Origin: Triglochin maritima
Taxonomy: Eukaryota > Streptophyta > Magnoliopsida > Alismatales > Juncaginaceae
Direction: 5' to 3'
Assembly: GCA_963682175.1 (NCBI GenBank)
Contig: OY821784.1
Coordinates: 35,879,621-35,943,620, forward strand
Length of the DNA: 64,000 nucleotides
Shown here one piece after another: positions 777 through 33,216 of the stretch. Both the position numbers and the translations under genes were made by a program. The notes under the pieces were generated by a model, which worked only from the letters and a program-made list of their open reading frames with translations, was not told the origin of the DNA and made no database searches. Numbering within the stretch: position 1 is the stretch's first letter; each line of letters starts with the position of its first letter.

Positions 777-785
777 TTAATGAAA
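777..785. repeat. Target-site duplication, left (TTAATGAAA)
   Basis: The 9 bases TTAATGAAA stand directly before the first element copy and recur at 18458-18466 after the second copy. Nine bases is the usual TSD length of Mutator-like elements. The duplication flanks the pair of copies and not each copy. Confidence 0.7.
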
Positions 786-1145
786 GAGTAGTTATATACG
801 GACGCGAGCGTCCGTGACGCGTCCTACGTGGAATAACACGTCAGCTGCCAGGTGTGCGTCCAGTCAACCAAAACCTCTGCGCGGGGAAATGTATACGAAT
901 TGTTGGGTGCGACGGTTCATTTCCCTAAATCACGATTTGTTGGGTGCGACGGTTCATTTCCGTGCGACGGTTCATTTCCCTAAATCACGATTAGACGGTT
1001 CGACTTCACGTACATCAGTAGCGGCGGTACAGCATTCGAGTAACTTTCCCCATTTCACCCGGAGTTCCTTTCCATACGCTCATCCAAAACCTTCATTGCT
1101 CCAAAACCTTTCCATTCCAGTAACGAAAACCAAGACAAGGCGAAA
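786..1145 (+). promoter_or_regulatory. Element end and 5' leader of the Ulp1 gene
   Basis: The element end holds an 8+8 palindrome, ACGGACGC-GA-GCGTCCGT (798-815). It is followed by a direct repeat built on GTGCGACGGTTCATTTCC (about 906-980, three occurrences). The first plausible ATG of the gene is at 1146. The promoter role is inferred from position. The same sequence is found at 9623-9982 in copy 2. Confidence 0.45.
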
Positions 1146-4100
1146 ATGGATCCTTCTCTACCTGAAACCTCCATTGCTCCTGAAATTGTAGCCGCGCAGG
1201 TGTTTTGTCAACCATGTTCTTTCTGGTTCATTTTAAGGTTCATTATTGGCCTCTAACAATTTTTTTGTGTGGTTTAAGGGAAGCACGTACTACTTCCGCG
1301 AAACCAAGTGCGGTTTCGCGGCCCTTCACAAGCAGTTCGACCGGATGAAGGAGGAGGAGAAAAATGTCTTCCAACGGACGCCTTTCGGTCACTTCCTCAG
1401 CTTTCCTCACGTCACAACTGACAACGAGATACTGGGTTGGTTCGTCGAACACTTCGACGCCAATGAAGTCGGTCTGAGAATAGCCACTGGGGTGGTCCCA
1501 TTTACGGTAGAAGACGTCGCCCTTCTACTTGGACTAAGAGTACATGGGCAGAGAGTGGATATGGATGCCATGTACGTAGCGAAACGTGACGGGGTTAACC
1601 TCGACAACACCCAGCTACTGGGTCATCTTACCGCCACGAGCAAGATGGGCGAGGAGGAGGAGCACGTCCGACTCCTTATTTCTATGATTTTCAATCATTT
1701 TTTGTTCTTCGATGGATCACTGCGAACTAAAGCGTGGTACACGAAACACCTTAAGAACCTCAAGCGCCTCAAGAGATATGCGTGGGCAAATGCGGTTCAC
1801 ACTTTCTTGGTTGAAGGCCTGGAGGAAGCCCAACGGGACCTCTCGAGGAGGAGATCGTCAGCGAACTTCTCTATGAAGCAGGGCTACGTGTCTGGTTGCG
1901 TTGCCGTATTACAAGTAAGCATCTTGGTCCGGAATGAGTGTTGTGTCAGTCCGGAATAGTGTCGGTTTATGTCCGGAATAAGTGTGTTGCCTGTCCGGAA
2001 TAGTCCTGTATGTGTCCGAAATGACTGTCTTGCTTGTCCGGAATACGTCTTGTGTCTGTCCGGAATACGTCTTCTGTCTGTCCTGAATAGTGTTGTCTCT
2101 GTCCGGAAAAAGTGTCTTGAGGTTTTCCGGAATAAGTGTCTTGTGGTAGTCCGGAATGAGTGTTGTGTCAGTCCGGAGTAGTGTTGGTTTATGTCCGGAA
2201 TAAGTGTGTTGCCTGTCCGGAATAGTCCTGTATGTGTCTGGAATGATTGTCTTGTCTGTCCGGAATACGTCTTGTGTCTGTCCGGGATAAGTCTTGTGTC
2301 TGTCCTGAATAGTGTTGTCTCTGTCCGGAATAAGTCTTGTGTCTGTCCGGGATAAGTTTTGTGTCTGTCCTCAATAGTGTTGTCTCTGTCCGGAATAAGT
2401 GTGTTGCCTGTCCGGAATAAGTGTGTTGCCAGTCCGGAATAGTCCTGTATGTGTCCGGAATACGTCTTGTGTCTGTCCGGAATAAGTAATTTGTATGTCC
2501 GGAATACGTCTTTGTCTGTCCGGAATAAGAGTTGTGTCTGTCCGGAATAAGAGTTGTGTCTGTCCGGAATAAGAGTTGTGTCTGTCCGGAATTAGTGATT
2601 AACGTTATGAGACTGTCCTGGGGATGTTATGTTTCTGTTTTTTAACTTATTCCTGTTTTCAGGTGTGGCTTTGCGAGAAGTTCAAATTGGGGGATCCCCG
2701 GTCAGCATTTCCACGGTTCAAGTGTTGGACCGAAATGTTTAGCAGACGCCAAATCCTTAGAAAATGGGAAGATCGAGGCATCAACTTGTCCCGGATATAC
2801 TCGGGCCAATTTGAGTTGAAGGGCACCCCAAAACTCAGTGCACGGGAGCATTCACTGTTGTCAGAGGATCAATTTCCTCCTGCAGCAGCAACTCCCGCAG
2901 CGAAGGAAACACCTTCAACTCCTGCAGAAGCAACGGTCGCCTCGAAGGAAACACCTTCAACATCCACTCTACCAAGGATACAACTCAGTGAATGCAGCAT
3001 TCCATGTGACCCACTGCTACAAGAGTTGGAACTTAGTGAGGTGAAGACGAAATGGCTGCGAGCCGAAGCAGCACTTAGGGAGGCGACCGTTAAAATTAAC
3101 AACCTGGAGGAAGAACTGCGGATCTCTCAAGAAGAGTGTCGTGAGCTGAGAGTCCGTGGGGAGGAGGAAGAGAGGGAAAAGAGGGAGGAGGAAGAGAGAA
3201 ATAAGAGGGAGGCGGAGGAGAGGGAAGAGAGGGAAGAGAGGGAGGAGGAAGAGAGAAATAAGAGGGAGGCGGAGGAGGAAGAGAGAAATAAGAGGGAGGC
3301 GGTGGAGAGGGAAGAGAGGGAAAAGAGGGAGGAGGAAGAGAGAAATAAGAGGGAGGCGGTGGAGAGGGAAGAGAGGGAAAAGAGGGAGGAGGAAGAGAGA
3401 AATAAGAGGGAGGAGGAGGAGAGGGAAGAGAGGGAAAAGAGGGAGGAGGAAGAGAGAAATAAGAGGGAGGAGGAGGAAGAAAAGGAGGAAGTTATGAGGA
3501 GACAGGAGGAAAGAAAGAGGAAGGCTGGGGTTGCGCTTCCGCTTTTGCACCCCAAAAAAATGCGGACCTTTAAACCACGCTTGCGCACAGAACACATACA
3601 CGAAGCGCAAAGCAAATCTGGCCAAGATGAGGCACAGAAGATTGCCGCAGAAAAACAAGAACAAATAAAGGAGGCCGAAGAAGCCACCACAAAAACAAAA
3701 GGGCCCGAAGAAGCCAGTGAAGAAAAAGCGAAAGATGAACTGGCCGCCCTTGTTTCGTCCACGAGGCCAGATGTGGATGATACCGCCTTGAGAACGCTGA
3801 CCAATGATGAGGTACATCGTTTATTGAATGCAACGGCCCCCGAGCGAGAAGCAAAAGATATTATCTGGAGGGGGGTTCTCAGCATTATCAGCAGGGGTGA
3901 TCTCAAGGAAATAATTTCGCGAGGCACAGAAATCACCAACGAAACGCTTGACGGCCTAATTGAGGTACTCGTCAGAAGAGGAGGGCAACAAAAGGTGGTC
4001 TGCTTATCATCCTTCGAATCGGAAATGATTGTGGAGGGACAGGGAGAAGATATAAAGAGAGATTATTTACTCCCAAAAATGGAAGGACTTAATGTGGAGG

Positions 4101-4504
4101 AAGTCGTCATCGCACAGCCATGCTGTTTGTCCGGCCACTGGACTCTGTTCGTTGCCCACGGACCTCGATCGGAGTTCATTCAGTACAACAGCCTCTCCCG
4201 CACGCTTAAAAGAGGTGAAAATCCTAACCTTTTAGTCGGAACTCATGAATGCACCGCGTCTAAGATAGCGGGATTCTGGCGAGGGTTTTTGGCGGTCGAA
4301 TGGCCACTGAGAGTTGACAGGAAGGGTAGCCAACGACAGCTAGCGGGGAGTAACGACTGCGGGCCATACGTTTTGTACTGGATCAAGCGTTTGATGGAGA
4401 ATGCTGATCCGACTCAGCCGAAGCAGAGCAAGGTTATTCACCGTTTTAGAGGCGATTTGGCCAATTTCTTACTCGAAGACTCTGGGATGTGCGATCAACA
4501 ATAA
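1146..4504 (+). CDS. MULE-carried mobile-domain-like / Ulp1 (C48) protease fusion, copy 1
   Basis: Three inferred exons, 1146-1199, 1279-1914 and 2663-4504, give 843 aa. All junctions are phase 0 (CAG/GTGTTT, CAA/GTAAGC, acceptors TTTAAG and TTTCAG). Residues 19-230 resemble the plant mobile domain/DUF1985 regions of MULE-borne genes (motif VEDVALLLGLRVHGQ). Residues about 360-513 are an E/R/K-rich coiled-coil repeat. The C-terminus is an Ulp1-like cysteine protease with GHWTLFV (His about 721) and SNDCGPYVLYW (Cys about 796). The usual Asp of the triad is Asn (QYNSLS, about 739). The family removes SUMO or related modifiers, but substrate and activity here are unknown. The 18-codon first exon starts at ATG; the long second exon has no usable upstream ATG in frame. 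The gene converges on the element's transposase. Confidence 0.75.
1915..2662 (+). repeat. Intron 2 made of TCCGGA minisatellite units, copy 1
   Basis: Nearly the whole 748-bp intron consists of degenerate units of about 20 bp built on TGTCTGTCCGGAATAAG or GTCCGGAATAGT. The array starts a few bases after the splice donor and stops shortly before the pyrimidine-rich acceptor. The exons on both sides lack it. Short reading frames within it are by-products of the repeat. Confidence 0.9.
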
Positions 4505-6333
4505 ACGACTCTGGATGTTTTAATTTTTTTTACAAAGTTATACATGTATACATGTTAAAATTACATAGACTATTTGAATGATTTATCAATACAATGACAT
4601 TTGGTGTTGGGTTAAATTATCAATACAAGGACATGTATAAATAATCAATACTCTTAAACCGGACAACAAATACACCTATTCCGGACAGCAAATACACTAA
4701 TTCCGGACAACAAATACACTTATTCCGGACAGCAAATACACTTATTCCGGAAAAACTTAATGTTCCGTTTCTGGACAAAATTTATTCTTAAACCGGACAA
4801 CAAATACACTTACTCCGAAAAACAAATACACTTATTCCGGACAGCAAATACACTTATTCCGAACAACAAATACACATATTCCGGACAACAAATACACATA
4901 TTCCGGACAACAAATACACTTATTCCGGACAGCAAATACACTTATTCCGGACAAAAAATACACTTATTCTGGGCAGCAAATACACTTATTCCGGACAAAC
5001 TTTTTGTTCCGTTTCGGGACACACTTTATTCTTATTCCGGACAGCAAATACACTTATTCGGGACAGCAAGTACACTTATTCCGGACAGCAAATACACTTA
5101 TTCCGGACACACTTTATTCTTAAACCGGACAACAAATACATTTATTCCGGACAACAAATACGCTTATTCCGGACAACAAATACACTTATTCCGGACAGCA
5201 AATACACTTATTCCGGACAAACTTTTTGTTCCGTTTCGGGACACACTTTATTCTTATTCCGGACAGCAAATACACTTATTCCGGACAGCAAGTACACTTA
5301 TTCCGGACAACAAATACACTTATTCCGGACACACTTTATTCTTAAACCGGACAACAAATACATTTATTCCGGACAACAAATACGCTTATTCCGGACAACA
5401 AATACACTTATTCCGGACAGCAAATACACTTATTCCGGTCAAACTTTTTGTTCCGTTTCGGGACACACTTTATTCTTATTCCGGACAGCAAATACACTTA
5501 TTCCGGACAGCAAGTACACTTATTCCGGACAGCAAATACACTTATTCCGGACACACTTTATTCTTAAACCGGACAACAAATACATTTATTCCGGACAACA
5601 AATACGCTTATTCCGGACAACAAATACACTTATTCCGGACAGCAAATACACTTATTCCGGACACACTTTTTGTTCCGTTTCGGGACATACTTTATTCTTA
5701 TTCCGGACAGCAAATACACTTATTCCGGACAACAAATACACTTATTCCGGACACACTTTATTCTTAAACCGGACAACAAATACATTTATTCCGGACAACA
5801 AATACGCTTATTCCGGACAACAAATACACTTATTCCGGACAGCAAATACACTTATTCCGGACAAACTTTTTGTTCCGTTTCGGGACATTGATGTAACGTA
5901 ATCCGGACATATTGGTAACGTAATCCGGACATACTGGTAACTTATTCCGGACAGAAATTAACGTAATCCGGACAGACAAACAATGTAATCCGGACTGCCT
6001 AATTACGTATTCCGGACATACTGGTCACTTAATCCGGACTTTGATGTTACGTAATCCGGACATACTGTTAACTTAATCCGGACATACTGTTAACTTAATC
6101 CGGACAGACATACAACGGTACAAAATTACTTAATATATTTGTCGCCATGAGAAATTAATTCACAAACGATCAAGCAAAGAAAGGGTTGAATCTTATGCAA
6201 TAATACAATGACTTTCAACAAAATTACATACAATGACTTTCAACAAAATTACATACAATGACATTCAACAAAATTACAATGACTTTCAACAAAATTACAT
6301 AGGAATAATTCCAACCAAGGACAAATACAATAA
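4505..6333. repeat. Intergenic TCCGGA satellite with a 222-bp higher-order repeat, copy 1
   Basis: Between the two convergent genes, about 4658-6112 is an array of units of about 22 bp, TTATTCCGGACAGCAAATAC and variants. A higher-order unit is marked by GTTTCGGGAC at 5011, 5233, 5455 and 5677, a spacing of exactly 222 bp; the next mark, at 5877, is one sub-unit short. From about 5890 the units change to TAACGTAATCCGGACATAC. A separate short repeat on ACAATGACTTTCAACAAAAT lies at 6205-6300. The 1-kb open frame across the array is a repeat artefact. Confidence 0.9.
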
Positions 6334-9002
6334 TCAAGGAGGAACTCCCTCGTAATGCAAATTCATGTCCCAGTCATCGAAATCGTGATCCCCCGGTTTG
6401 GGTGCTGCAGGGTGTAACGGGGGTAGAGCCTTCTTCCTGTTGATTTTCTTAACGTTACTTTTAATTATTTTCTCAGACAAAGAAATCCGTCGTTTGCTCG
6501 GCGGTCTGCCTTTCCGTATTGTCTTATCCGGATTGAGAACGGATGTACCAGCGAACACAGGATCAGGTCGTTGCATACGTTCCTTAAGCAACTCAAGTGC
6601 CTCTACCGCCTGAAGATATCTGTCGTTTGAGTCGAAAGCGGCCTCGGCGATCCAAAGCGCACGACCCATTATGTCGTCGTGGCGACGAAGCGCATCGTTC
6701 CCCGTTATGCCGCTTTGAAGAGGAAACTTGACTCCATAGCTCCTTCGGATATCCTTCCTCCATCGGTGGACGATGTAAAACTCGGGGAGCAACGCGTTTG
6801 GACGTATTCGGGCAATAACAACATAAACGTGACAACATAGGATACCGACGTGATCAAACATTCTGCAATCGCATACCCACTTCTCATCTCTAATTTGCAC
6901 TGTGAACCGTTTCGACAATGGGAGGATATGTGTCAATACATGTTCGGTCACGTTGAAGTGCAATGTGTCGTCCTCGTTGAACTCATCCTTGATGTCGCAG
7001 TACATCATCTTCCCAATTTCTAACTGCACCTTCTTGAAGACACCCACCGTATACAACTCGCTCAATTGCCTCTCGAATGGATATTTCGAAATCAATTGCG
7101 GAGCCTTATGCTGACAATCGAAATCAGACTGAGCTTCCTTCTCATACTTGTGGCGTAGTGCGAGTTCGTATTGTTGAACGAACTGCTTAAGTGTCGTCCT
7201 TGATGTGAGGTACTTATCGAAGAAGGCGTTCATACCCTCACTTCTCTGGGTTGATGCCATTCCGGCGGAAAAACAATCCCTCGAAAATGCAGGTACCCAG
7301 TGCTCTCGAATTGCATAAATGGATCGGAGCCAATTATTGTCGTGCAACTCGAAATCATCTAGAAATCCCTGCCAATTCCGCTCGAATTCTGCCGGAGTCT
7401 TGGAATCGAATACACAGTTGTTGAGGTCAAACAACGTATGCTCCCGGTACTTCTTGGGCAGCTTCACAGGGGCCTTATTCATTATGTGCCATATACAAAA
7501 TCTGTGCCGCGCTTCAGGGAACACAGTCCTCACAGCCGAAGCTATGGCGCCACATTGGTCTGTTATGATCGCCGGGGGGCTTGTATCTGCACACAAAGCG
7601 ATCAAGATAAAAACATATGTTAATCCGGACAGAAATAACGTAAACCGGACAGACGTCAAGGGTAAACCGGACGAGCAAAAGACGTAAACCGGACAGACGT
7701 AAAGGATAAACCGGACGAGCAAAAGACGTAAACCGGACAGGCGTAGGGGTAAACCGGACAGACGTAAGGGATAAACCGGACGCGCAAAAAACGTAAACCG
7801 GACTTACGTAAGGGATAAACCGGACGAGCAAAATACGTAAACCGGACAGACGTAAGGGATAAAACGGACGAGCAAAATACGTAAACCGGACAGACGTAAG
7901 GGGTAAACAGGACGAGCAAAAGACGTAAACAGGACAGACGTAAGGGATAAACCGGACGAGCAAAATACGTAAAACGGACAGACGTAAGGGAGTAACCGGA
8001 CAGGCACACAACGTAAAATGGACAAAGCCGGACAAAATAAAACACGTACCGTTCATGCACGTCAACCATGTTTGGAACAACCAAATGTAATTTTGTGTCG
8101 TCTCGGAAGAGAGGAGTGCGCAACCGAGTAGGACGGACTGGTAGTGGTGATTTACCCCCACAAATGGGGCAAAAGGCATGTCATACTTGTTTGTTATGTA
8201 TGTTGTGTCGAAACATATTGCATCTCCAAAGTAAGAGTAAGCAGCTCGAGACCGACTGTCGGCCCAGAACACATTTCGTAGTCTGCCTTCGTCGTCCATA
8301 TCCATTACGTAAAAGAAGCGGGAATCATTCTTCTGCATCCTGATGAAATAATCTTGGATAGCTTGCGCATCTCCTGGTCCCATTTTGAGGTTTCTAACCT
8401 CGTTCACAACATTCCTGCGAAACATAATTTTTATGACAAAGCTAAATGCGTAACTTCAACCAGGTTAAGTGGAGAATAAATAACCTTAGGTCCCGCTCGT
8501 TGAAAGACAATTTATCGTGACCTCCAGCTTCGACCACAAAAGATTGCATGGTCTTGGCGGCAGATATACCGGCAGCATCATTGCACGAAATGCGTGCTCT
8601 GGCGGACTCCGGGACGGATCGTTTTTGACGGAGGAAGCGCATCTGGTCTTCCGACAGCATGGCGTGATTATGTTCGAGATCTACGTAGTTAATTACGTAG
8701 CCTCTGGATGGATTACCGGAGACCCTAATCCGCGCAGTGCATTCGACCCTACCGGATAACCTATGTTTCGGTCTACCTTCACCTTGGTTTCCGGGAGCAT
8801 TACCTTCCTTTGAGCAAGTAAGAGTGGCCCGTATAACAACACCACGATCGTAATGAGATTGCCTTATCTTCACACCAAAACCACAGGAATCGGCGTATGA
8901 AACGTAAAATGCTTTGGCTTCTTCGAAGGAAGGAAAATTCATCATCACTTGAGGGACGTTGGAGGCAGGAGCCGGCTGTGAGGACACATTTACGAGTGCC
9001 AT
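6334..9002 (-). CDS. FAR1-related MULE transposase, copy 1
   Basis: Exons 9002-8485, 8414-8050 and 7586-6334 (minus strand) encode 711 aa. Introns are 70 bp and 463 bp with GT-AG ends and restored frame. The start is the ATG at 9002 (MALVNVSS); farther upstream the frame has only a non-ATG start. The N-terminal 20-115 region is a FAR1-type DNA-binding domain (SFEEAKAFYVSYADSCGF). The MULE DDE region follows: FDTTYITNKYDMPFAPF (Asp about 242), IITDQ (Asp about 304), a candidate Glu in QRSEGMNAFF, then a SWIM zinc finger (VCDCRMFDHVGILCCH, about 535). The tail is basic. The length is normal for the family and there is no in-frame stop, so it may be active. It should act in the nucleus on the element's own ends. 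Confidence 0.85.
7587..8049 (-). repeat. Transposase intron 2 filled with CCGGA repeats, copy 1
   Basis: The 463-bp intron between the exons carrying the first and second catalytic Asp consists largely of units like ACGTAAACCGGACAGACGTA (plus strand). This is the same core as the other arrays of the element, read on the opposite strand. The array reaches close to both splice sites. Confidence 0.88.
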
Positions 9003-9070
9003 TACAGTACAACAAAAATGGAGGAAGGAGAGAAGAAGGAATGGTTCGTAGGATCGGAATAACCTAGACA

Positions 9071-9622
9071 CTCATATTTGTATCTCCGTGACGCGCCAAA
9101 CAATAAGAAAGAAGACGGAGGACGTGCTGATTTGAAAAGCATTAAATGCGATGGTGGACGCATCGGGAAAATAAAACAACAGCAACAAAAAATCAGGAGT
9201 AAGTAGTTCGTTTGTCCGGAATAAGTGTTCCGTCTGTCCGGAATAAGTATTCCAACTGTCCGGAATAAATAGTAACTGTGTCCGGAATAAGTTACGTGCT
9301 TGTCCAGAAACTAAAGAAAATGAATGACGTGTGTGTCCGGAAAAAAATGAATTTAATAAAGAGAAGGGAAGAAATAGGAGGACGAATGTTGAGTGTAGGA
9401 GCGCCAACATGATGAAAGAATGGAGTGATTTGAGACGCATTAATGAGGGATGGCGAGGGATGGCGAAATTTGTACGAAACGAGGAATAAACTAAACAAAG
9501 AAATTGTTTCTGGGGAGAGAGCGAACTCAGCCGCGTCTGCTGACTGGGTTGCCCACATCAGCCATTCTGCTGACTGGGTTTGCAGCGTCCGTGACGCGAA
9601 GCGTTCAACAAACATTTTTAAT
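9071..9622. promoter_or_regulatory. Transposase-side element end, copy 1
   Basis: Upstream of the transposase, four to five TGTCCGGAATAAG units lie at 9212-9345. The terminal part has two copies of CTGCTGACTGGGTT and the motif GCGTCCGTGACGCG at 9587-9600. It should hold the transposase promoter. No clear TATA box was identified. Confidence 0.5.
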
Positions 9623-9982
9623 GAGTAGTTATATACGGACGCGAGCGTCCGTGACGCGTCCTACGTGGAATAACACGTCAGCTGCCAGGTGTGCGTCCAG
9701 TCAACCAAAACCTCTGCGCGGGGAAATGTATACGAATTGTTGGGTGCGACGGTTCATTTCCCTAAATCACGATTTGTTGGGTGCGACGGTTCATTTCCGT
9801 GCGACGGTTCATTTCCCTAAATCACGATTAGACGGTTCGACTTCACGTACATCAGTAGCGGCGGTACAGCATTCGAGTAACTTTCCCCATTTCACCCGGA
9901 GTTCCTTTCCATACGCTCATCCAAAACCTTCATTGCTCCAAAACCTTTCCATTCCAGTAACGAAAACCAAGACAAGGCGAAA

Positions 9983-12900
9983 ATGGATCCTTCTCTACCT
10001 GAAACCTCCATTGCTCCTGAAATTGTAGCCGCGCAGGTGTTTTGTCAACCATGTTCTTTCTGGTTCATTTTAAGGTTCATTATTGGCCTCTAACAATTTT
10101 TTTGTGTGGTTTAAGGGAAGCACGTACTACTTCCGCGAAACCAAGTGCGGTTTCGCGGCCCTTCACAAGCAGTTCGACCGGATGAAGGAGGAGGAGAAAA
10201 ATGTCTTCCAACGGACGCCTTTCGGTCACTTCCTCAGCTTTCCTCACGTCACAACTGACAACGAGATACTGGGTTGGTTCGTCGAACACTTCGACGCCAA
10301 TGAAGTCGGTCTGAGAATAGCCACTGGGGTGGTCCCATTTACGGTAGAAGACGTCGCCCTTCTACTTGGACTAAGAGTACATGGGCAGAGAGTGGATATG
10401 GATGCCATGTACGTAGCGAAACGTGACGGGGTTAACCTCGACAACACCCAGCTACTGGGTCATCTTACCGCCACGAGCAAGATGGGCGAGGAGGAGGAGC
10501 ACGTCCGACTCCTTATTTCTATGATTTTCAATCATTTTTTGTTCTTCGATGGATCACTGCGAACTAAAGCGTGGTACACGAAACACCTTAAGAACCTCAA
10601 GCGCCTCAAGAGATATGCGTGGGCAAATGCGGTTCACACTTTCTTGGTTGAAGGCCTGGAGGAAGCCCAACGGGACCTCTCGAGGAGGAGATCGTCAGCG
10701 AACTTCTCTATGAAGCAGGGCTACGTGTCTGGTTGCGTTGCCGTATTACAAGTAAGCATCTTGGTCCGGAATGAGTGTTGTGTCAGTCCGGAATAGTGTC
10801 GGTTTATGTCCGGAATAAGTGTGTTGCCTGTCCGGAATAGTCCTGTATGTGTCCGAAATGACTGTCTTGCTTGTCCGGAATACGTCTTGTGTCTGTCCGG
10901 AATACGTCTTCTGTCTGTCCTGAATAGTGTTGTCTCTGTCCGGAAAAAGTGTCTTGAGGTTTTCCGGAATAAGTGTCTTGTGGTAGTCCGGAATGAGTGT
11001 TGTGTCAGTCCGGAGTAGTGTTGGTTTATGTCCGGAATAAGTGTGTTGCCTGTCCGGAATAGTCCTGTATGTGTCTGGAATGATTGTCTTGTCTGTCCGG
11101 AATACGTCTTGTGTCTGTCCGGGATAAGTCTTGTGTCTGTCCTGAATAGTGTTGTCTCTGTCCGGAATAAGTCTTGTGTCTGTCCGGGATAAGTTTTGTG
11201 TCTGTCCTCAATAGTGTTGTCTCTGTCCGGAATAAGTGTGTTGCCTGTCCGGAATAAGTGTGTTGCCAGTCCGGAATAGTCCTGTATGTGTCCGGAATAC
11301 GTCTTGTGTCTGTCCGGAATAAGTAATTTGTATGTCCGGAATACGTCTTTGTCTGTCCGGAATAAGAGTTGTGTCTGTCCGGAATAAGAGTTGTGTCTGT
11401 CCGGAATAAGAGTTGTGTCTGTCCGGAATTAGTGATTAACGTTATGAGACTGTCCTGGGGATGTTATGTTTCTGTTTTTTAACTTATTCCTGTTTTCAGG
11501 TGTGGCTTTGCGAGAAGTTCAAATTGGGGGATCCCCGGTCAGCATTTCCACGGTTCAAGTGTTGGACCGAAATGTTTAGCAGACGCCAAATCCTTAGAAA
11601 ATGGGAAGATCGAGGCATCAACTTGTCCCGGATATACTCGGGCCAATTTGAGTTGAAGGGCACCCCAAAACTCAGTGCACGGGAGCATTCACTGTTGTCA
11701 GAGGATCAATTTCCTCCTGCAGCAGCAACTCCCGCAGCGAAGGAAACACCTTCAACTCCTGCAGAAGCAACGGTCGCCTCGAAGGAAACACCTTCAACAT
11801 CCACTCTACCAAGGATACAACTCAGTGAATGCAGCATTCCATGTGACCCACTGCTACAAGAGTTGGAACTTAGTGAGGTGAAGACGAAATGGCTGCGAGC
11901 CGAAGCAGCACTTAGGGAGGCGACCGTTAAAATTAACAACCTGGAGGAAGAACTGCGGATCTCTCAAGAAGAGTGTCGTGAGCTGAGAGTCCGTGGGGAG
12001 GAGGAAGAGAGGGAAAAGAGGGAGGAGGAAGAGAGAAATAAGAGGGAGGCGGAGGAGAGGGAAGAGAGGGAAGAGAGGGAGGAGGAAGAGAGAAATAAGA
12101 GGGAGGCGGAGGAGGAAGAGAGAAATAAGAGGGAGGCGGTGGAGAGGGAAGAGAGGGAAAAGAGGGAGGAGGAAGAGAGAAATAAGAGGGAGGCGGTGGA
12201 GAGGGAAGAGAGGGAAAAGAGGGAGGAGGAAGAGAGAAATAAGAGGGAGGAGGAGGAGAGGGAAGAGAGGGAAAAGAGGGAGGAGGAAGAGAGAAATAAG
12301 AGGGAGGAGGAGGAAGAAAAGGAGGAAGTTATGAGGAGACAGGAGGAAAGAAAGAGGAAGGCTGGGGTTGCGCTTCCGCTTTTGCACCCCAAAAAAATGC
12401 GGACCTTTAAACCACGCTTGCGCACAGAACACATACACGAAGCGCAAAGCAAATCTGGCCAAGATGAGGCACAGAAGATTGCCGCAGAAAAACAAGAACA
12501 AATAAAGGAGGCCGAAGAAGCCACCACAAAAACAAAAGGGCCCGAAGAAGCCAGTGAAGAAAAAGCGAAAGATGAACTGGCCGCCCTTGTTTCGTCCACG
12601 AGGCCAGATGTGGATGATACCGCCTTGAGAACGCTGACCAATGATGAGGTACATCGTTTATTGAATGCAACGGCCCCCGAGCGAGAAGCAAAAGATATTA
12701 TCTGGAGGGGGGTTCTCAGCATTATCAGCAGGGGTGATCTCAAGGAAATAATTTCGCGAGGCACAGAAATCACCAACGAAACGCTTGACGGCCTAATTGA
12801 GGTACTCGTCAGAAGAGGAGGGCAACAAAAGGTGGTCTGCTTATCATCCTTCGAATCGGAAATGATTGTGGAGGGACAGGGAGAAGATATAAAGAGAGAT

Positions 12901-13341
12901 TATTTACTCCCAAAAATGGAAGGACTTAATGTGGAGGAAGTCGTCATCGCACAGCCATGCTGTTTGTCCGGCCACTGGACTCTGTTCGTTGCCCACGGAC
13001 CTCGATCGGAGTTCATTCAGTACAACAGCCTCTCCCGCACGCTTAAAAGAGGTGAAAATCCTAACCTTTTAGTCGGAACTCATGAATGCACCGCGTCTAA
13101 GATAGCGGGATTCTGGCGAGGGTTTTTGGCGGTCGAATGGCCACTGAGAGTTGACAGGAAGGGTAGCCAACGACAGCTAGCGGGGAGTAACGACTGCGGG
13201 CCATACGTTTTGTACTGGATCAAGCGTTTGATGGAGAATGCTGATCCGACTCAGCCGAAGCAGAGCAAGGTTATTCACCGTTTTAGAGGCGATTTGGCCA
13301 ATTTCTTACTCGAAGACTCTGGGATGTGCGATCAACAATAA
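9983..13341 (+). CDS. MULE-carried mobile-domain-like / Ulp1 protease fusion, copy 2
   Basis: Exons 9983-10036, 10116-10751 and 11500-13341 encode the same 843-aa product as the copy-1 gene at 1146-4504. I saw no stop, frameshift or substitution relative to that gene, including the Asn at the usual catalytic Asp position. Identity at coding and silent sites alike means the duplication is too young for selection to be read from it. Confidence 0.75.
10752..11499 (+). repeat. Intron 2 TCCGGA array, copy 2
   Basis: Same length (748 bp) and same unit order as 1915-2662. Tandem minisatellites usually diverge in unit number quickly, so unchanged length supports a very recent copy. Confidence 0.88.
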
Positions 13342-15170
13342 ACGACTCTGGATGTTTTAATTTTTTTTACAAAGTTATACATGTATACATGTTAAAATTA
13401 CATAGACTATTTGAATGATTTATCAATACAATGACATTTGGTGTTGGGTTAAATTATCAATACAAGGACATGTATAAATAATCAATACTCTTAAACCGGA
13501 CAACAAATACACCTATTCCGGACAGCAAATACACTAATTCCGGACAACAAATACACTTATTCCGGACAGCAAATACACTTATTCCGGAAAAACTTAATGT
13601 TCCGTTTCTGGACAAAATTTATTCTTAAACCGGACAACAAATACACTTACTCCGAAAAACAAATACACTTATTCCGGACAGCAAATACACTTATTCCGAA
13701 CAACAAATACACATATTCCGGACAACAAATACACATATTCCGGACAACAAATACACTTATTCCGGACAGCAAATACACTTATTCCGGACAAAAAATACAC
13801 TTATTCTGGGCAGCAAATACACTTATTCCGGACAAACTTTTTGTTCCGTTTCGGGACACACTTTATTCTTATTCCGGACAGCAAATACACTTATTCGGGA
13901 CAGCAAGTACACTTATTCCGGACAGCAAATACACTTATTCCGGACACACTTTATTCTTAAACCGGACAACAAATACATTTATTCCGGACAACAAATACGC
14001 TTATTCCGGACAACAAATACACTTATTCCGGACAGCAAATACACTTATTCCGGACAAACTTTTTGTTCCGTTTCGGGACACACTTTATTCTTATTCCGGA
14101 CAGCAAATACACTTATTCCGGACAGCAAGTACACTTATTCCGGACAACAAATACACTTATTCCGGACACACTTTATTCTTAAACCGGACAACAAATACAT
14201 TTATTCCGGACAACAAATACGCTTATTCCGGACAACAAATACACTTATTCCGGACAGCAAATACACTTATTCCGGTCAAACTTTTTGTTCCGTTTCGGGA
14301 CACACTTTATTCTTATTCCGGACAGCAAATACACTTATTCCGGACAGCAAGTACACTTATTCCGGACAGCAAATACACTTATTCCGGACACACTTTATTC
14401 TTAAACCGGACAACAAATACATTTATTCCGGACAACAAATACGCTTATTCCGGACAACAAATACACTTATTCCGGACAGCAAATACACTTATTCCGGACA
14501 CACTTTTTGTTCCGTTTCGGGACATACTTTATTCTTATTCCGGACAGCAAATACACTTATTCCGGACAACAAATACACTTATTCCGGACACACTTTATTC
14601 TTAAACCGGACAACAAATACATTTATTCCGGACAACAAATACGCTTATTCCGGACAACAAATACACTTATTCCGGACAGCAAATACACTTATTCCGGACA
14701 AACTTTTTGTTCCGTTTCGGGACATTGATGTAACGTAATCCGGACATATTGGTAACGTAATCCGGACATACTGGTAACTTATTCCGGACAGAAATTAACG
14801 TAATCCGGACAGACAAACAATGTAATCCGGACTGCCTAATTACGTATTCCGGACATACTGGTCACTTAATCCGGACTTTGATGTTACGTAATCCGGACAT
14901 ACTGTTAACTTAATCCGGACATACTGTTAACTTAATCCGGACAGACATACAACGGTACAAAATTACTTAATATATTTGTCGCCATGAGAAATTAATTCAC
15001 AAACGATCAAGCAAAGAAAGGGTTGAATCTTATGCAATAATACAATGACTTTCAACAAAATTACATACAATGACTTTCAACAAAATTACATACAATGACA
15101 TTCAACAAAATTACAATGACTTTCAACAAAATTACATAGGAATAATTCCAACCAAGGACAAATACAATAA
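13342..15170. repeat. Intergenic TCCGGA satellite with 222-bp higher-order repeat, copy 2
   Basis: Matches 4505-6333 base for base in the stretches compared, including the four GTTTCGGGAC marks spaced 222 bp apart (13848, 14070, 14292, 14514). It separates the 3' ends of the Ulp1 gene and the transposase. Confidence 0.88.
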
Positions 15171-17839
15171 TCAAGGAGGAACTCCCTCGTAATGCAAATT
15201 CATGTCCCAGTCATCGAAATCGTGATCCCCCGGTTTGGGTGCTGCAGGGTGTAACGGGGGTAGAGCCTTCTTCCTGTTGATTTTCTTAACGTTACTTTTA
15301 ATTATTTTCTCAGACAAAGAAATCCGTCGTTTGCTCGGCGGTCTGCCTTTCCGTATTGTCTTATCCGGATTGAGAACGGATGTACCAGCGAACACAGGAT
15401 CAGGTCGTTGCATACGTTCCTTAAGCAACTCAAGTGCCTCTACCGCCTGAAGATATCTGTCGTTTGAGTCGAAAGCGGCCTCGGCGATCCAAAGCGCACG
15501 ACCCATTATGTCGTCGTGGCGACGAAGCGCATCGTTCCCCGTTATGCCGCTTTGAAGAGGAAACTTGACTCCATAGCTCCTTCGGATATCCTTCCTCCAT
15601 CGGTGGACGATGTAAAACTCGGGGAGCAACGCGTTTGGACGTATTCGGGCAATAACAACATAAACGTGACAACATAGGATACCGACGTGATCAAACATTC
15701 TGCAATCGCATACCCACTTCTCATCTCTAATTTGCACTGTGAACCGTTTCGACAATGGGAGGATATGTGTCAATACATGTTCGGTCACGTTGAAGTGCAA
15801 TGTGTCGTCCTCGTTGAACTCATCCTTGATGTCGCAGTACATCATCTTCCCAATTTCTAACTGCACCTTCTTGAAGACACCCACCGTATACAACTCGCTC
15901 AATTGCCTCTCGAATGGATATTTCGAAATCAATTGCGGAGCCTTATGCTGACAATCGAAATCAGACTGAGCTTCCTTCTCATACTTGTGGCGTAGTGCGA
16001 GTTCGTATTGTTGAACGAACTGCTTAAGTGTCGTCCTTGATGTGAGGTACTTATCGAAGAAGGCGTTCATACCCTCACTTCTCTGGGTTGATGCCATTCC
16101 GGCGGAAAAACAATCCCTCGAAAATGCAGGTACCCAGTGCTCTCGAATTGCATAAATGGATCGGAGCCAATTATTGTCGTGCAACTCGAAATCATCTAGA
16201 AATCCCTGCCAATTCCGCTCGAATTCTGCCGGAGTCTTGGAATCGAATACACAGTTGTTGAGGTCAAACAACGTATGCTCCCGGTACTTCTTGGGCAGCT
16301 TCACAGGGGCCTTATTCATTATGTGCCATATACAAAATCTGTGCCGCGCTTCAGGGAACACAGTCCTCACAGCCGAAGCTATGGCGCCACATTGGTCTGT
16401 TATGATCGCCGGGGGGCTTGTATCTGCACACAAAGCGATCAAGATAAAAACATATGTTAATCCGGACAGAAATAACGTAAACCGGACAGACGTCAAGGGT
16501 AAACCGGACGAGCAAAAGACGTAAACCGGACAGACGTAAAGGATAAACCGGACGAGCAAAAGACGTAAACCGGACAGGCGTAGGGGTAAACCGGACAGAC
16601 GTAAGGGATAAACCGGACGCGCAAAAAACGTAAACCGGACTTACGTAAGGGATAAACCGGACGAGCAAAATACGTAAACCGGACAGACGTAAGGGATAAA
16701 ACGGACGAGCAAAATACGTAAACCGGACAGACGTAAGGGGTAAACAGGACGAGCAAAAGACGTAAACAGGACAGACGTAAGGGATAAACCGGACGAGCAA
16801 AATACGTAAAACGGACAGACGTAAGGGAGTAACCGGACAGGCACACAACGTAAAATGGACAAAGCCGGACAAAATAAAACACGTACCGTTCATGCACGTC
16901 AACCATGTTTGGAACAACCAAATGTAATTTTGTGTCGTCTCGGAAGAGAGGAGTGCGCAACCGAGTAGGACGGACTGGTAGTGGTGATTTACCCCCACAA
17001 ATGGGGCAAAAGGCATGTCATACTTGTTTGTTATGTATGTTGTGTCGAAACATATTGCATCTCCAAAGTAAGAGTAAGCAGCTCGAGACCGACTGTCGGC
17101 CCAGAACACATTTCGTAGTCTGCCTTCGTCGTCCATATCCATTACGTAAAAGAAGCGGGAATCATTCTTCTGCATCCTGATGAAATAATCTTGGATAGCT
17201 TGCGCATCTCCTGGTCCCATTTTGAGGTTTCTAACCTCGTTCACAACATTCCTGCGAAACATAATTTTTATGACAAAGCTAAATGCGTAACTTCAACCAG
17301 GTTAAGTGGAGAATAAATAACCTTAGGTCCCGCTCGTTGAAAGACAATTTATCGTGACCTCCAGCTTCGACCACAAAAGATTGCATGGTCTTGGCGGCAG
17401 ATATACCGGCAGCATCATTGCACGAAATGCGTGCTCTGGCGGACTCCGGGACGGATCGTTTTTGACGGAGGAAGCGCATCTGGTCTTCCGACAGCATGGC
17501 GTGATTATGTTCGAGATCTACGTAGTTAATTACGTAGCCTCTGGATGGATTACCGGAGACCCTAATCCGCGCAGTGCATTCGACCCTACCGGATAACCTA
17601 TGTTTCGGTCTACCTTCACCTTGGTTTCCGGGAGCATTACCTTCCTTTGAGCAAGTAAGAGTGGCCCGTATAACAACACCACGATCGTAATGAGATTGCC
17701 TTATCTTCACACCAAAACCACAGGAATCGGCGTATGAAACGTAAAATGCTTTGGCTTCTTCGAAGGAAGGAAAATTCATCATCACTTGAGGGACGTTGGA
17801 GGCAGGAGCCGGCTGTGAGGACACATTTACGAGTGCCAT
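15171..17839 (-). CDS. FAR1-related MULE transposase, copy 2
   Basis: Exons 17839-17322, 17251-16887 and 16423-15171 (minus strand) encode the same 711-aa protein as 6334-9002, with FAR1, DDE and SWIM regions intact. Two undamaged transposase genes in tandem make further movement of this family plausible unless it is silenced. Confidence 0.85.
16424..16886 (-). repeat. Transposase intron 2 CCGGA array, copy 2
   Basis: Copy of the 463-bp intronic array at 7587-8049, with the same unit order. Confidence 0.86.
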
Positions 17840-17907
17840 TACAGTACAACAAAAATGGAGGAAGGAGAGAAGAAGGAATGGTTCGTAGGATCGGAATAAC
17901 CTAGACA

Positions 17908-18457
17908 CTCATATTTGTATCTCCGTGACGCGCCAAACAATAAGAAAGAAGACGGAGGACGTGCTGATTTGAAAAGCATTAAATGCGATGGTGGACGCAT
18001 CGGGAAAATAAAACAACAGCAACAAAAAATCAGGAGTAAGTAGTTCGTTTGTCCGGAATAAGTGTTCCGTCTGTCCGGAATAAGTATTCCAACTGTCCGG
18101 AATAAATAGTAACTGTGTCCGGAATAAGTTACGTGCTTGTCCAGAAACTAAAGAAAATGAATGACGTGTGTGTCCGGAAAAAAATGAATTTAATAAAGAG
18201 AAGGGAAGAAATAGGAGGACGAATGTTGAGTGTAGGAGCGCCAACATGATGAAAGAATGGAGTGATTTGAGACGCATTAATGAGGGATGGCGAGGGATGG
18301 CGAAATTTGTACGAAACGAGGAATAAACTAAACAAAGAAATTGTTTCTGGGGAGAGAGCGAACTCAGCCGCGTCTGCTGACTGGGTTGCCCACATCAGCC
18401 ATTCTGCTGACTGGGTTTGCAGCGTCCGTGACGCGAAGCGTTCAACAAACATTTCCC
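17908..18457. promoter_or_regulatory. Transposase-side element end, copy 2
   Basis: Same content as 9071-9622: TGTCCGGAATAAG units at 18049-18182, duplicated CTGCTGACTGGGTT, and GCGTCCGTGACGCG at 18424-18437. Here the element reaches its outer end (AACATTTCCC) before the TSD. Confidence 0.5.
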
Positions 18458-18466
18458 TTAATGAAA
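18458..18466. repeat. Target-site duplication, right (TTAATGAAA)
   Basis: Exact match to 777-785. The bases after it (TGGTTATATCT) also partly resemble the start of the element (GAGTAGTTATATA), so the boundary could shift by a few bases. Confidence 0.65.
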
Positions 18467-29972: not shown

Positions 29973-31190
29973 AGTGGAGAGAGAGTGATGAGAGAGAGAA
30001 AGTGGGATGAGAGAGAGTGAACGATTGGAGAGCGAGAAAGGAGAGGGAGATTGAAAGAGTGGAGAGGAAGAAAGGTGAGAAAGAGAGAGAGTAAGAGAGT
30101 GGAGAGCGAGAAAGGAGAGGGAGAGTGAAAAAGTGGAGAGGAAGAAAAGAGAGAGAGATTCAAGAGAGAGAGTGAGAGAGTGGAGAGGGAGAAAGGAGAG
30201 AAAGAGATTCAAGAGAGAGAGAAAGAGGTTGCATTTCGTAGAGAGAGATTCAAGATAGAGAGATGGGAATGAGAGAGAGAGAGAAAGAGGGATGAGAGAG
30301 AGTGAAATATTGGAGAACGAGAAAGGGGAGAGAGTGTGAAAGAGTGGAGGTAGAAAGGAGAGAAAGAAAGATTCAAGAGAGGGAGAGTGAAAGAGTGGAG
30401 AGAGAGAGAAAGAAAGATTCAAGAGAGGGAGAGTGAAAGAGTGGAGAGAGAGAAAGGAGAGAGAAGATTCAAGAGAGAGAGAAAGATGGATGAGAGTGAG
30501 ATATTCATGAGAGAGAGAGAGTGATGAGAGAGAGAAAGATATTGTGTTTCGTGGAGAGAGAGAGAGAGAAAGGATAGAGATTCAAAAGGGAGAGCGGGCT
30601 GAGAGAGAGAGTGAAATAGTGGAGAGAGAGAGAGAGAGATGAGAGAGAGGAGAGGGAGAAAGGAGAGGGAGAAAGGAGAGAGAGTGGAGGTAGAAAGAGA
30701 GAGAGAGAGAAAGATTAAAGAGAGATAGGGAAAGAAAGAAACATTCAAAAGAGAGAGTGAAAGAGTGGAGAGAGAAGGAGAGAGAAAGATTCAAGAGAGA
30801 GAGTGAAAAAGGTGGAGAGGGAGAAAGGAGAGAGAGAGAAAGGAGAGAGATTAAAAAAACGGGATGAGAGAGAGTGAAAGAGTGGAGAGAGAGATTCAAG
30901 AGACAAAGCAGGATGAGAGAGAGAGAGAGAAGAGGGAGAGAGAAGAGGTAGAAAGAGAGAAAGAAAGAAAGATTCAAGAGAGAGAGTGAAAGAGTGGTGA
31001 GAGAGAGAAAGATTCAAGAGAGAGAGTGAAAGAGTGGAGATGGAGAAATGAGAGCGAGATTCTAGAGAGAGAGTGGAGAGAGAGAGAGAAAGATGGATGA
31101 GTGGGTGTGTGTGAAAGAGTGGAGAGAGATTCAAGAGAGAGAGGGATGAGAGAGTGAGAGTGAAAGAGTGGAGAGTGAAAAAGTAGAGAG
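29973..31190. repeat. 1.2-kb GA-rich low-complexity block
   Basis: Almost purely purine on the plus strand. It is built from drifting units like GAGAGAGAGTGAAAGAGTGG and GAGAAAGATTCAAGAGAGAG, with rare interruptions (TTGCATTTCGTAG near 30228, ATTGTGTTTCGTGG near 30540). Long Ser/Leu-rich open frames on the minus strand follow from the composition and are not genes. Confidence 0.92.
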
Positions 31191-33216
31191 CATTAGACAA
31201 TTTGATTTTTTATGTAATTCTTTTTACAATTAAGGACATTTGGATTTTACAAGGTTTAAATTGCAAATTTTCTTCGCCGTTGGATAGTAACGGTGACGGA
31301 GTGGGGTCCACTAACGACAGAAGTGTATATCAGCAAATAACACCGGATTACAGGTGCACATCAGGAAATAACAAAAAACATAGGTGCATTTGGCCAATTA
31401 GATCACTTAGGAGGTGCACAGTAGCAAATTATCCTAGAAAGGATTTGGGCCTACGAGAATGGTAGAAAATTAGAAATAATCAAAATATGTGGAGAAAGAT
31501 AAATCTAGAATTTATGGTATAAATCTAGAATTATACCATAAATTATAGATTTAACCTGCACAATTCACAGGTTAACCGTGGTCAAAGCTACCTCTTTATC
31601 TAACGCCATATCTAAGTTACCAAAAAAAACTGTAGATTTCTTTTGCGGCAATTATGCACATGTTGTTGGTTGGTTAGTTGGTTGGTTAGTTGGATTATGT
31701 TTGGTTTGTCATGTTATACTTATCCCAAACATTTAAGGTTGCTTCCACTTGTGCAGCAATCTTTTGTTTGTCCTTAAATAGTTTGGTCAACTGATTTCTT
31801 CTACTATGCATTACCGGAACAGCATGTGGCAGTTTAGGTCTGGCTGAGTCGGTTGATTCTTGTCCCTATTGGTCCATGTGTGGCAACTAGCAACTTAGAA
31901 TTTTTTTTAAAAAAAAAGAGGAAAATGAAATTTGACATATGTATAATTGATATTTAGATTGTATATCGATGCAATAGTAAGTTGGGTCACTTACTCACTT
32001 ATCAACTTAATTAGGTTTTCATAATACGTCATTTCAATTTGGGTAGAGTTTTCCTACAATTTATTGCTTTTCTTGAAACTTTGAAATAACATCTATATTA
32101 GCCTCTAACACCTATTAATCTCATTTACAAATGTCTGATATCCTAACTTTATGGAGTTACAAATGCTTTAGAAAGTTTGAAGTTTAGAGTTTTACATGAT
32201 TAAAGTCCATGCTTTCACATGGCATAGGATAAGATGAATTTCTCTTTGCATTATTATCACCACAAATTATATCCTCTCGTCGTGGACCTAAGCTAAAAGT
32301 CTTCTTTAAAATTAAGCATAAGTTGTTTGTTTCCAACACACAACTCAACAAGCTTGCTGCATCTTTTCTCCATATCTTATCTTGTCACTCTTAACCTAGC
32401 TATGTGCGTACCTTTCTCCATTCGTAATAGTTTTCCGATAGAATGTATATTTGTATATCTTTTTAGTTTCAGCTAATTAAGCACGAGATGAACTCATATT
32501 TAGATTAAAAATAGCTAATTAAAACATGCGCAGATGTGCTGATGTAGGTTTTCTAGTGAAGGAAAGTTTTAAGAGAGTGGGATTACTTTCCCACTCTCTT
32601 AATCATCAAGAAGTAGGACTTCCAGAGAGATGAAAAATGTTTTAAATAGGATAAAAAAATGGACAAAAATGAATCCACTTGGGTCTCTTGATCTTATATA
32701 GTTATAGGAAATTACTTTCAAATATCATGATTTTTGAAGTGCACGAACAACTCCAGTTATATATGTATTCAAATTTACGGTTTGGATTTTCATTTTATTA
32801 AAAAATGATCTAATATACTTTGAAAGAACTTGAGCTCAAGTAAATGAAGGGAATCAAGCTCTTTCGTGTAGTAAATTTAGATTTAGAGGGTGTATTAAGA
32901 ATACCGATCAAATAACAATATGCAAATAGTAAGTCACTAAAAACTGTTTATAAGGTGTTACTAAATTTGCCCAACATGCAGACAGGAGCAGTTTGTATAA
33001 CATTTACGTTGTATAAATCAACTGATCCCTGAACAACAAGATCAATACACTAGACCATTATTTTATGTACATCAGTCCATATATCTAATCATCTAATTTA
33101 CAATTAATACATCCATGCAGTACCTTTATTTCCTATACAATTGACTACAATCTGCATTATGCCTATAATGTATATGATCCAATTGCAAGAAGTTGTGTAT
33201 GTATATTTAAACTTCA
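31191..33216. other. Intergenic DNA, including the displaced 3' flank of the polygalacturonase gene
   Basis: No gene recognised. A GGTTAGTTGG microsatellite lies near 31665-31700 and a perfect hairpin at 32569-32602. The last 100-200 bases before 33217, read on the minus strand, are what originally followed the polygalacturonase stop codon before the MULE inserted, so they probably contain its ancestral 3' UTR. Confidence 0.5.
32569..32602. repeat. Perfect 14-bp inverted repeat
   Basis: TTAAGAGAGTGGGA and its reverse complement are separated by the 6-base loop TTACTT. Surrounding DNA is AT-rich and non-coding. It could be a folded RNA element, a remnant of a small inverted-repeat transposon or chance; nothing else identifies it. 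Confidence 0.7.

What the first reader, a model, noticed from the sequence alone, without database searches (positions are those of the whole stretch)
786..18457. A mobile element whose own short motif fills its introns and spacers: candidate self-recognition (anti-silencing) system
In each copy the TGTCCGGAATAAG-type motif occupies four separate non-coding compartments (Ulp1-gene intron 2, the intergenic spacer, transposase intron 2, the transposase-side end) on both strands. It is absent from the coding exons. Independent slippage would not choose one core in four places. In Arabidopsis VANDAL elements, which are also non-TIR MULEs, the VANC protein binds short motifs amplified in the element's non-coding DNA and reverses its silencing. 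The mobile-domain/Ulp1 protein here could play the VANC part with a new motif, possibly adding SUMO removal at chromatin. The VANDAL/VANC facts are established; the transfer to this element is inference.
Basis: partly seen in the sequence, partly recalled or inferred. Interest (0 to 1): 0.88.

Follow-up and report, generated by a model that had tools for sequence, protein, structure and literature searches.

The report
Transposon carrying its own recognition tags
A plant jumping gene fills its introns and spacers, but not its protein-coding parts, with one 13-letter motif that occurs about 44,000 times in this genome and lay inside its own family in 14 of 15 places checked, which likely lets a protein that it encodes recognise the family and would protect it from silencing.

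Summary
Each of two identical tandem 8.8-kb copies holds 86 TGTCCGG cores in four non-coding compartments, each on one strand only, and one in exons. The genome (1.06 Gb) holds 44,323 exact 13-mers; the reversed control 2. Of 15 motif-sampled places, 14 lie in this family. Of 8 elements sampled by their ends, 7 carry the motif; the eighth carries a variant, TGTTCGG, itself 23,145-fold, control 23. Two relatives at synonymous dS 0.8-1.2 keep arrays in gene introns and spacer, same orientation, but not at the end. Core and tail are better conserved than the linker. Two-kb derivatives without full-length genes keep ends and array.

This is the layout of VANDAL/VANC anti-silencing. Ulp1-bearing VANC genes ("KIU") are already in print, so the Ulp1 idea is not new. 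Different here: a plant mobile domain where VANC has DUF1985/DUF287, another motif, two motif types in one family. Binding and demethylation were not tested; no T-type autonomous partner was shown.

The parts
777..785 (.). target-site duplication TTAATGAAA, left of the tandem pair
   Evidence: identical 9-mer at 18458-18466
786..1145 (+). left end and 5' region of gene 1, no TGTCCGG; holds end 14-mer GCGTCCGTGACGCG at 808
   Evidence: end 14-mer 2621 times in the genome, control 0
1146..1199 (+). gene 1 exon 1 (copy 1)
   Evidence: gene model from splice sites and open frames
1279..1914 (+). gene 1 exon 2, most of the plant mobile domain (PF10536)
1915..2662 (+). gene 1 intron 2: motif array, 20 TGTCCGG, all sense
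   Evidence: 29 of 30 other genomic loci have the intron with 11-26 sense cores
2663..4504 (+). gene 1 exon 3: rest of mobile domain, E/R-rich coiled coil, Ulp1-like C48 domain
4505..6333 (-). spacer between convergent genes: motif arrays 4647-5864 and 5894-6106, 52 TGTCCGG, all on the minus strand
6334..7586 (-). transposase exon 3
   Evidence: gene model; MULE/SWIM domains
7587..8049 (-). transposase intron 2: motif array, 9 TGTCCGG (15 GTCCGG), all sense to the transposase, tail TTTACC
   Evidence: 105 places in the genome have the core 10-40 bases behind this exon donor, control 0
8050..8414 (-). transposase exon 2
8485..9002 (-). transposase exon 1, FAR1 domain
9003..9617 (+). transposase-side end: 5 TGTCCGG on the plus strand (9213-9346); end 14-mer at 9585
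9618..9622 (.). junction TTAAT between the copies; copy 1 lacks the terminal CCC
9623..18457 (.). copy 2, same features at +8837
   Evidence: 0 mismatches over the shared stretch
18458..18466 (.). target-site duplication TTAATGAAA, right of the tandem pair

Best explanation
The element carries, in its introns, spacer and one end, arrays of a 13-base motif (TGTCCGGAATAAG, mostly every 22 bases) that are likely bound by the element's own mobile-domain/Ulp1 protein, which would then undo silencing of its family, as VANC does for VANDAL elements. Shown: arrays, compartments, orientation, location in the family in 14 of 15 sampled places, retention in derivatives without full-length genes, retention in introns and spacer of relatives at near-saturated synonymous divergence, and one family member whose array has TGTTCGG throughout instead. 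Inferred: that gene 1 rather than the transposase binds; that binding lowers DNA methylation or other silent marks; that the 22-base step (about two helical turns) puts binding sites on one face of the DNA; that the Ulp1-like domain strips SUMO at the bound chromatin.
For: Enrichment: 44,323 exact 13-mers against 2. Family location: 8 of 8 motif clusters and 6 of 7 further places. Reverse direction: 8 of 8 non-autonomous elements sampled by their ends carry an array, 7 C-type and 1 T-type. Same intron and spacer compartments and orientation at dS 1.22 (gene 1) and 0.82 (transposase) to L001, 1.17 and 1.04 to L012, with dN/dS 0.17-0.24 for both the mobile domain and the Ulp1-like domain. Leave-one-segment-out conservation over 14 arrays: core 87.0%, tail 89.1%, linker 68.3%. 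29 of 30 further gene-1 loci have intron 2 with 11-26 sense cores and no antisense one. The ends carry a different motif, GCGTCCGTGACGCG (2621 copies, control 0), a candidate separate site for the transposase. The published VANC system has the same layout: introns, intergenic and terminal non-coding DNA, not exons, in same-orientation tandem arrays (PMC5735166, parts 1-3 of 6).
Against: No binding or methylation data. DUF1985 and DUF287 not found. The Ulp1-like domain is below Pfam's cut-off (17.7-20.2 bits against 20.7) and has Asn where Ulp1 has its catalytic Asp (position recalled). The transposase is about equally conserved and could be the binder. The end compartment is not kept: no cluster of 3 or more cores upstream of the transposase in L001 or L012. 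No T-type autonomous partner was shown: 2 places have a T-type core 10-40 bases behind the transposase exon-2 donor, against 105 C-type. One sampled array (L054) has no recognised element around it. Old arrays show CpG decay (32 of 59 single changes), so these copies were probably methylated at some time.
Confidence: 0.6

Rival explanations
1. The arrays are binding sites of the transposase itself (FAR1 domain), used for transposition, or for activation and demethylation as with TnpA of Spm or MURA of MuDR.
For: Derivatives keep ends and array together. A paper reports demethylation linked to TnpA and to MURA (PMC10398659, passages). The transposase has a FAR1 DNA-binding domain.
Against: The ends carry another motif, GCGTCCGTGACGCG; arrays are mostly internal, in introns and spacer, not subterminal; gene 1 would then have no role yet is under strong purifying selection over the long branches.
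Confidence: 0.2
2. The arrays serve or attract a host factor (splicing or transcription enhancement in introns, or small-RNA-directed methylation), not an element protein.
For: Arrays in the gene-1 and transposase introns are sense to the gene. Tandem repeats can be RdDM targets (PMC10398659, passages). Old arrays show CpG decay.
Against: The spacer and the derivatives without full-length genes keep the arrays. A whole array with another core, TGTTCGG, is not expected for a fixed host factor.
Confidence: 0.12
3. The arrays are selfish minisatellites copied between non-coding slots of one element, tolerated because they avoid exons, with no binding protein.
For: Array lengths vary freely (intron 2 of 414-828 bases); one array lies outside recognised elements (L054); in the T-type array L051 the linker is as uniform as the motif.
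Against: Linkers differ between compartments while core and tail are largely shared; over 14 arrays core and tail are more conserved than linker even when left out of detection; layout kept at dS about 0.8-1.2.
Confidence: 0.08

Closest known systems
VANDAL21/VANC21 and VANDAL6/VANC6 of Arabidopsis (Hosaka 2017, PMC5735166, parts 1-3 of 6 read)
   Same: Mu-like element with a further gene beside the transposase; same-orientation tandem arrays of a short motif in introns, intergenic and terminal non-coding DNA, not exons; motif types that differ between related members (published C-type and T-type; here TGTCCGG and TGTTCGG).
   Different: Motifs YAGTATTAY and AGTTGTCC/AGTTGTAC there, TGTCCGGAATAAG here (TGTTGTCC of the spacer array matches AGTTGTCC at 7 of 8 letters, possibly chance). 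DUF1985/DUF287 there, mobile domain plus Ulp1-like domain here. Activity shown there, untested here.
KIU / Kaonashi: VANC genes with a transduplicated Ulp1 domain (PMC13317346, passages; Sasaki 2022 not held)
   Same: Ulp1 domain in the VANC-position gene; ULP reversed to the transposase in Arabidopsis KI-MULEs (PMC2528002 passages) and convergent genes here.
   Different: The review's text does not contain the words plant mobile domain; whether the motif here is among those of Sasaki 2022 I could not check; no activity data here.
Plant mobile domain proteins MAIN/MAIL1 and MULE-captured PMD-C (PMC5418596, passages)
   Same: The mobile domain sits in a Mu-like element; the authors speculate on use in a TE anti-silencing pathway.
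   Different: [quoted passage not shown] here a separate gene fused to a coiled coil and a Ulp1-like domain. The clade of this mobile domain was not determined.
TnpA of Spm and MURA of MuDR (PMC10398659, passages)
   Same: Element protein linked to hypomethylation of its own family.
   Different: MURA is the transposase and acts on terminal repeats; here arrays are internal and distinct from the end motif.

Membership tests
Mutator-like element (MULE) | MULE/FAR1 transposase | tested here: met
   PF10551 8.5e-33, PF03101 1.2e-15, PF04434 4.9e-07
Mutator-like element (MULE) | 9-bp target-site duplication | tested here: met
   TTAATGAAA around the tandem pair; exact shared 9-mers in 5 of 8 derivatives (L046, L048, L049, L051, L052), none found by the script in L047, L050, L053
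VANDAL/VANC anti-silencing system | No long terminal inverted repeats | tested here: inconclusive
   Autonomous ends carry the 14-mer in direct orientation; derivatives carry it inverted, so short inverted ends exist; no full TIR search was made
VANDAL/VANC anti-silencing system | VANC protein with DUF1985 and/or DUF287 | tested here: not met
   Pfam at E up to 0.1 for the whole protein and up to 10 for pieces and relatives: no DUF1985 or DUF287; mobile domain and C48 plus chance-level hits; no profile-profile test was possible
VANDAL/VANC anti-silencing system | Short motif in same-orientation tandem arrays in non-coding DNA of the element, absent from exons | tested here: met
   one 7-mer core in exon 3
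VANDAL/VANC anti-silencing system | Motif largely confined to the family | tested here: met
   14 of 15 sampled places; not a census of the 44,323
VANDAL/VANC anti-silencing system | VANC binds the motif and expression lowers methylation of the family | not testable with these tools
   needs protein and plants
KIU (Ulp1-bearing VANC) | Ulp1 domain in the VANC-position gene | tested here: inconclusive
   PF02902 17.7 to 20.2 bits against cut-off 20.7; GHW and NDCG invariant in 4 aligned rows, but L012, a broken copy not in that alignment, has NYCR; dN/dS 0.18 (L001) and 0.24 (L012); AlphaFold model unusable, pLDDT 34.8

The most novel reading that the evidence does not exclude
A Mu-like element has built a VANC-type self-recognition system from a captured plant mobile domain, the same domain that host MAIN/MAIL1 use to silence transposons, fused to a Ulp1-like SUMO protease: it targets its own 13-base tags, displaces or counteracts host mobile-domain silencing and strips SUMO there, and the family has already split into two recognition codes, TGTCCGG and TGTTCGG, with non-autonomous members able to swap the tag array between shared ends.
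Probability: 0.2. Interest if true: 0.85.

Novelty: new variant of a known kind. Interest (0 to 1): 0.6.

Why it matters
If true, sequence-specific anti-silencing is not tied to the VANC domains DUF1985/DUF287: a transposon can reach it with the domain family that its host uses for silencing. It gives a candidate motif-protein pair with about 44,000 natural sites, a second motif type 23,000-fold in the same genome, and at least 78 scored places of one gene-1 lineage, most of them 96-98% identical to it: a natural experiment on how anti-silencing specificity changes. It would also bear on what the Ulp1 domain does in such proteins, which the 2026 review calls unknown.

Tried and rejected
Chance or simple slippage rejected. 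Unrelated satellite rejected as the main source (14 of 15 places in the family), though L054 stays open. Gene-1 homologues: two searches, the second limited to the 7972 candidates sharing most words, gave one relative, P0001, source JGI; a PDB profile search gave none. AlphaFold of the Ulp1-like part was useless, so no fold search was made. CpG decay as a sign of hypomethylation was inconclusive: young copies are simply young, old ones show decay. T-type coevolution: the arrays at C1:135178-139955 (18, 9 and 2 exact motifs; +, +, -) have the order and gaps of an autonomous element, but the sequence could not be fetched; none of the listed gene-1 or transposase matches fell there, though only the best candidates are scored; and the donor-anchored test found 2 T-type places. 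A rarer T-type pattern gave 26 places, control 1, none informative. Literature: the string CCGGAATAAG, searched anywhere in words, gave 11 papers, of which the 10 listed are on unrelated topics by title; Sasaki 2022 (EMBO J) is not held and its content on domain gain and loss, helical periodicity and non-autonomous VANDALs is recalled only.
Full report
WHAT IS THERE. Positions 786-18457 hold two head-to-tail copies of an 8.8-kb Mu-like element, identical at every base of the shared stretch 786-9617. A 9-bp duplication TTAATGAAA flanks the pair. Each copy has two convergent genes. Gene 1 (+): exons 1146-1199, 1279-1914 and 2663-4504, 843 aa, with a plant mobile domain (2.2e-13, 50.5 bits, cut-off 34.9; 34.1 bits in the relative L001), an E/R-rich coiled coil and a Ulp1-like C48 domain just under the Pfam cut-off. 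Gene 2 (-): exons 9002-8485, 8414-8050 and 7586-6334, 711 aa, a FAR1/MULE/SWIM transposase. Gene models are from splice sites and open frames, with several alternatives open; no transcripts were available. The plant is unnamed; named relatives of the transposase are flowering plants.

THE MOTIF. With up to 2 mismatches TGTCCGGAATAAG occurs 177 times in the window against 1.65 expected. In copy 1 the core TGTCCGG occurs 86 times in four non-coding compartments and once in an exon. Within a compartment all copies point one way: sense to gene 1 in its intron 2 (20), minus strand in the spacer (52), sense to the transposase in its intron 2 (9), plus strand at the transposase-side end (5). The step is mostly 22 bases. 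Linkers differ between compartments, and the tail of transposase intron 2 is TTTACC rather than AATAAG. To avoid the bias of finding units by their core, I located units with each segment left out in turn: over 14 arrays the core is 87.0% conserved (3482 of 4004 sites), the tail 89.1% (2928 of 3288), the linker 68.3% (4367 of 6390). In the T-type array L051 taken alone the linker (90%) is better kept than the tail (84%).

GENOME-WIDE TEST. The genome (1,063,122,952 bases) holds 23,438 + 20,885 exact 13-mers; the reversed control holds 0 + 2. I read the eight motif clusters among the 100 places listed, all at the start of contig C1. Three lie in elements with recognisable gene 1 and transposase (L001/2, L012/13, L014/15). 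Five are about 2-kb elements that share ends and array with each other and have no full-length genes; L009 lacks the left tip, and L007 has a transposase fragment (residues 1-53) next to it. I then read 7 of 43 clusters (my count) in the listing of a rarer form with 456 places, of which 100 were listed, choosing two odd-looking ones on purpose: four are in autonomous copies, two in non-autonomous ones, one (L054, a decayed array of about 125 units near a contig end) has no recognised element in its 5 kb. So 14 of 15.

THE OTHER DIRECTION. The end 14-mer GCGTCCGTGACGCG occurs 2,621 times, control 0. Besides two already read, I noted 11 pairs of facing ends about 1.4-2.4 kb apart in that listing and fetched eight. 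Seven have 15-34 TGTCCGG, all on one strand. The eighth, L051, has none; its 54-unit array reads TGTTCGG (48 units with an accepted tail). Its array also faces the other way relative to the ends, so it is a different array, not the same one mutated in place. TGTTCGGAATAAG occurs 23,145 times, control 23.

CONSERVATION. Between the window element and L001, dS is 1.22 for gene 1 and 0.82 for the transposase; to L012, 1.17 and 1.04. dN/dS for gene 1 is 0.22 and 0.27; for the mobile domain 0.17 and 0.21, for the Ulp1-like domain 0.18 and 0.24, for the stretch between 0.43 and 0.43. To the close relative L014 dN/dS is higher (0.54 for gene 1), as for L016 (0.64), over few changes. L001 has the arrays in gene-1 intron 2, spacer and transposase intron 2, each oriented as in the window; in L012 transposase exon 3 is missing and its intron and spacer arrays run together; neither has a cluster of 3 or more cores upstream of the transposase, where the window has 5 and L014 has 3. 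Of 30 loci fetched with gene-1 exon 2, 29 have the intron between the two exons: 414-828 bases, 11-26 sense cores, none antisense, CAG acceptors in all 29, donors GTAA in 28 and GTCA in one; L016 lacks a normal intron. At least 78 places of the window's gene-1 lineage and 150 of a second query (about half at 73-78% identity, many without stops) were scored; both are lower bounds. 105 places show the core 10-40 bases behind the transposase exon-2 donor, control 0. The family is large, with members that have open frames.

HOW IT MOST LIKELY WORKS. The ends offer one site (the 14-mer) and the arrays another. Derivatives that lack full-length genes keep both, as expected if two trans-acting proteins are needed. 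The array layout is that of VANC targets: VANC21 sits on introns, intergenic and terminal non-coding DNA, binds a short motif in dense same-orientation arrays, and lowers methylation of whole elements; related VANCs use other motifs, and subfamilies differ in motif types (PMC5735166, parts 1-3 of 6 read). I therefore place the gene-1 protein in the VANC role. That step is inference. The choice between gene 1 and the transposase as binder is the main uncertainty.

WHAT IS KNOWN. A 2026 review (PMC13317346, passages) states that some VANDAL VANC genes carry a transduplicated Ulp1 domain (KIU), act on motifs of KIU-carrying VANDALs, and that the precise Ulp1 function is unknown; it cites Sasaki 2022, which I could not read. 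PMC5418596 (passages) describes mobile domains in MULEs and speculates on anti-silencing use. PMC2528002 (passages) reports ULP domains in several grapevine MULE families. So the kind is known. Different here: gene 1 has a mobile domain and no DUF1985/DUF287 by Pfam, the motif differs from those of VANC21 and VANC6 that I read, and two motif types coexist in one family. Whether the mobile domain and DUF1985 are related folds was not testable here.

AGAINST. No T-type autonomous element was shown: three T-type clusters at C1:135178-139955 have the right order and gaps but were not read, no listed gene match falls there, and only 2 places have a T-type core behind the transposase donor, a test that sees only lineages with that exact donor sequence. 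CpG changes dominate in old arrays (32 of 59 single changes in L001 and L012, 16 of 29 in L054) and are fewer in young ones (3 of 24 in L017-L045; 0 of 14 in the window; 1 of 13 in L014; 36 of 171 in non-autonomous loci), which fits age and past methylation of old copies and does not show protection. In exon 2 of young copies (16 of 29 loci aligned) there were 5 C-to-T type changes at 90 CpG bases and 5 at 239 other C/G bases, too few to compare.

Noticed in passing
9610-9640 and flanks: The pair is flanked by one 9-bp duplication, but the inner junction lacks the terminal CCC and has only TTAAT, the first five bases of that duplication. This suggests a tandem insertion or alternative transposition, which a paper proposes for two close VANDAL21 copies (PMC12312487, passages); the copies are 100% identical, so an assembly duplication is not excluded.
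   Followed up: partly
33798-38911: A second Mu-like element: FAR1/MULE transposase in one open frame (33798-35819), an ORF with an OTU-protease-like stretch (recalled, no Pfam hit; 35732-36511) and mobile-domain ORFs on the other strand (37012-38911).
   Followed up: partly
L051 900-2101; genome-wide: T-type motif TGTTCGGAATAAG, 23,145 copies; a second recognition code or a drifted array in the same element family.
   Followed up: partly
L001/L002, L012/L013, non-autonomous loci: Decay of the core's CpG is lopsided: 26 TGTCCAG against 6 TGTCTGG in the old elements, 30 against 6 in the non-autonomous loci. Symmetric deamination would not give this; TGTCCAG may be tolerated or amplified.
   Followed up: no
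L054 1205-3952: About 125 decayed 22-base units with the same 13-mer, next to a 278-base tandem repeat, 36 kb from the contig end, without recognised element flanks: an old relic or a satellite born from the element.
   Followed up: partly
G000 contig C1: The 100 listed end 14-mers lie at 0.2-21.7 Mb and 52-61 Mb, none between 22 and 52 Mb: the element seems to avoid the middle of the chromosome.
   Followed up: no
29977-31190: A strand-biased GA-rich tandem region of about 1.2 kb, GC skew 0.63 in the 2-kb bin 30001-32000.
   Followed up: no
4660-5864: The spacer array reads TTGTTGTCCGG in many units; TGTTGTCC matches the published VANC6 motif AGTTGTCC at 7 of 8 letters. A lead, possibly chance.
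   Followed up: no
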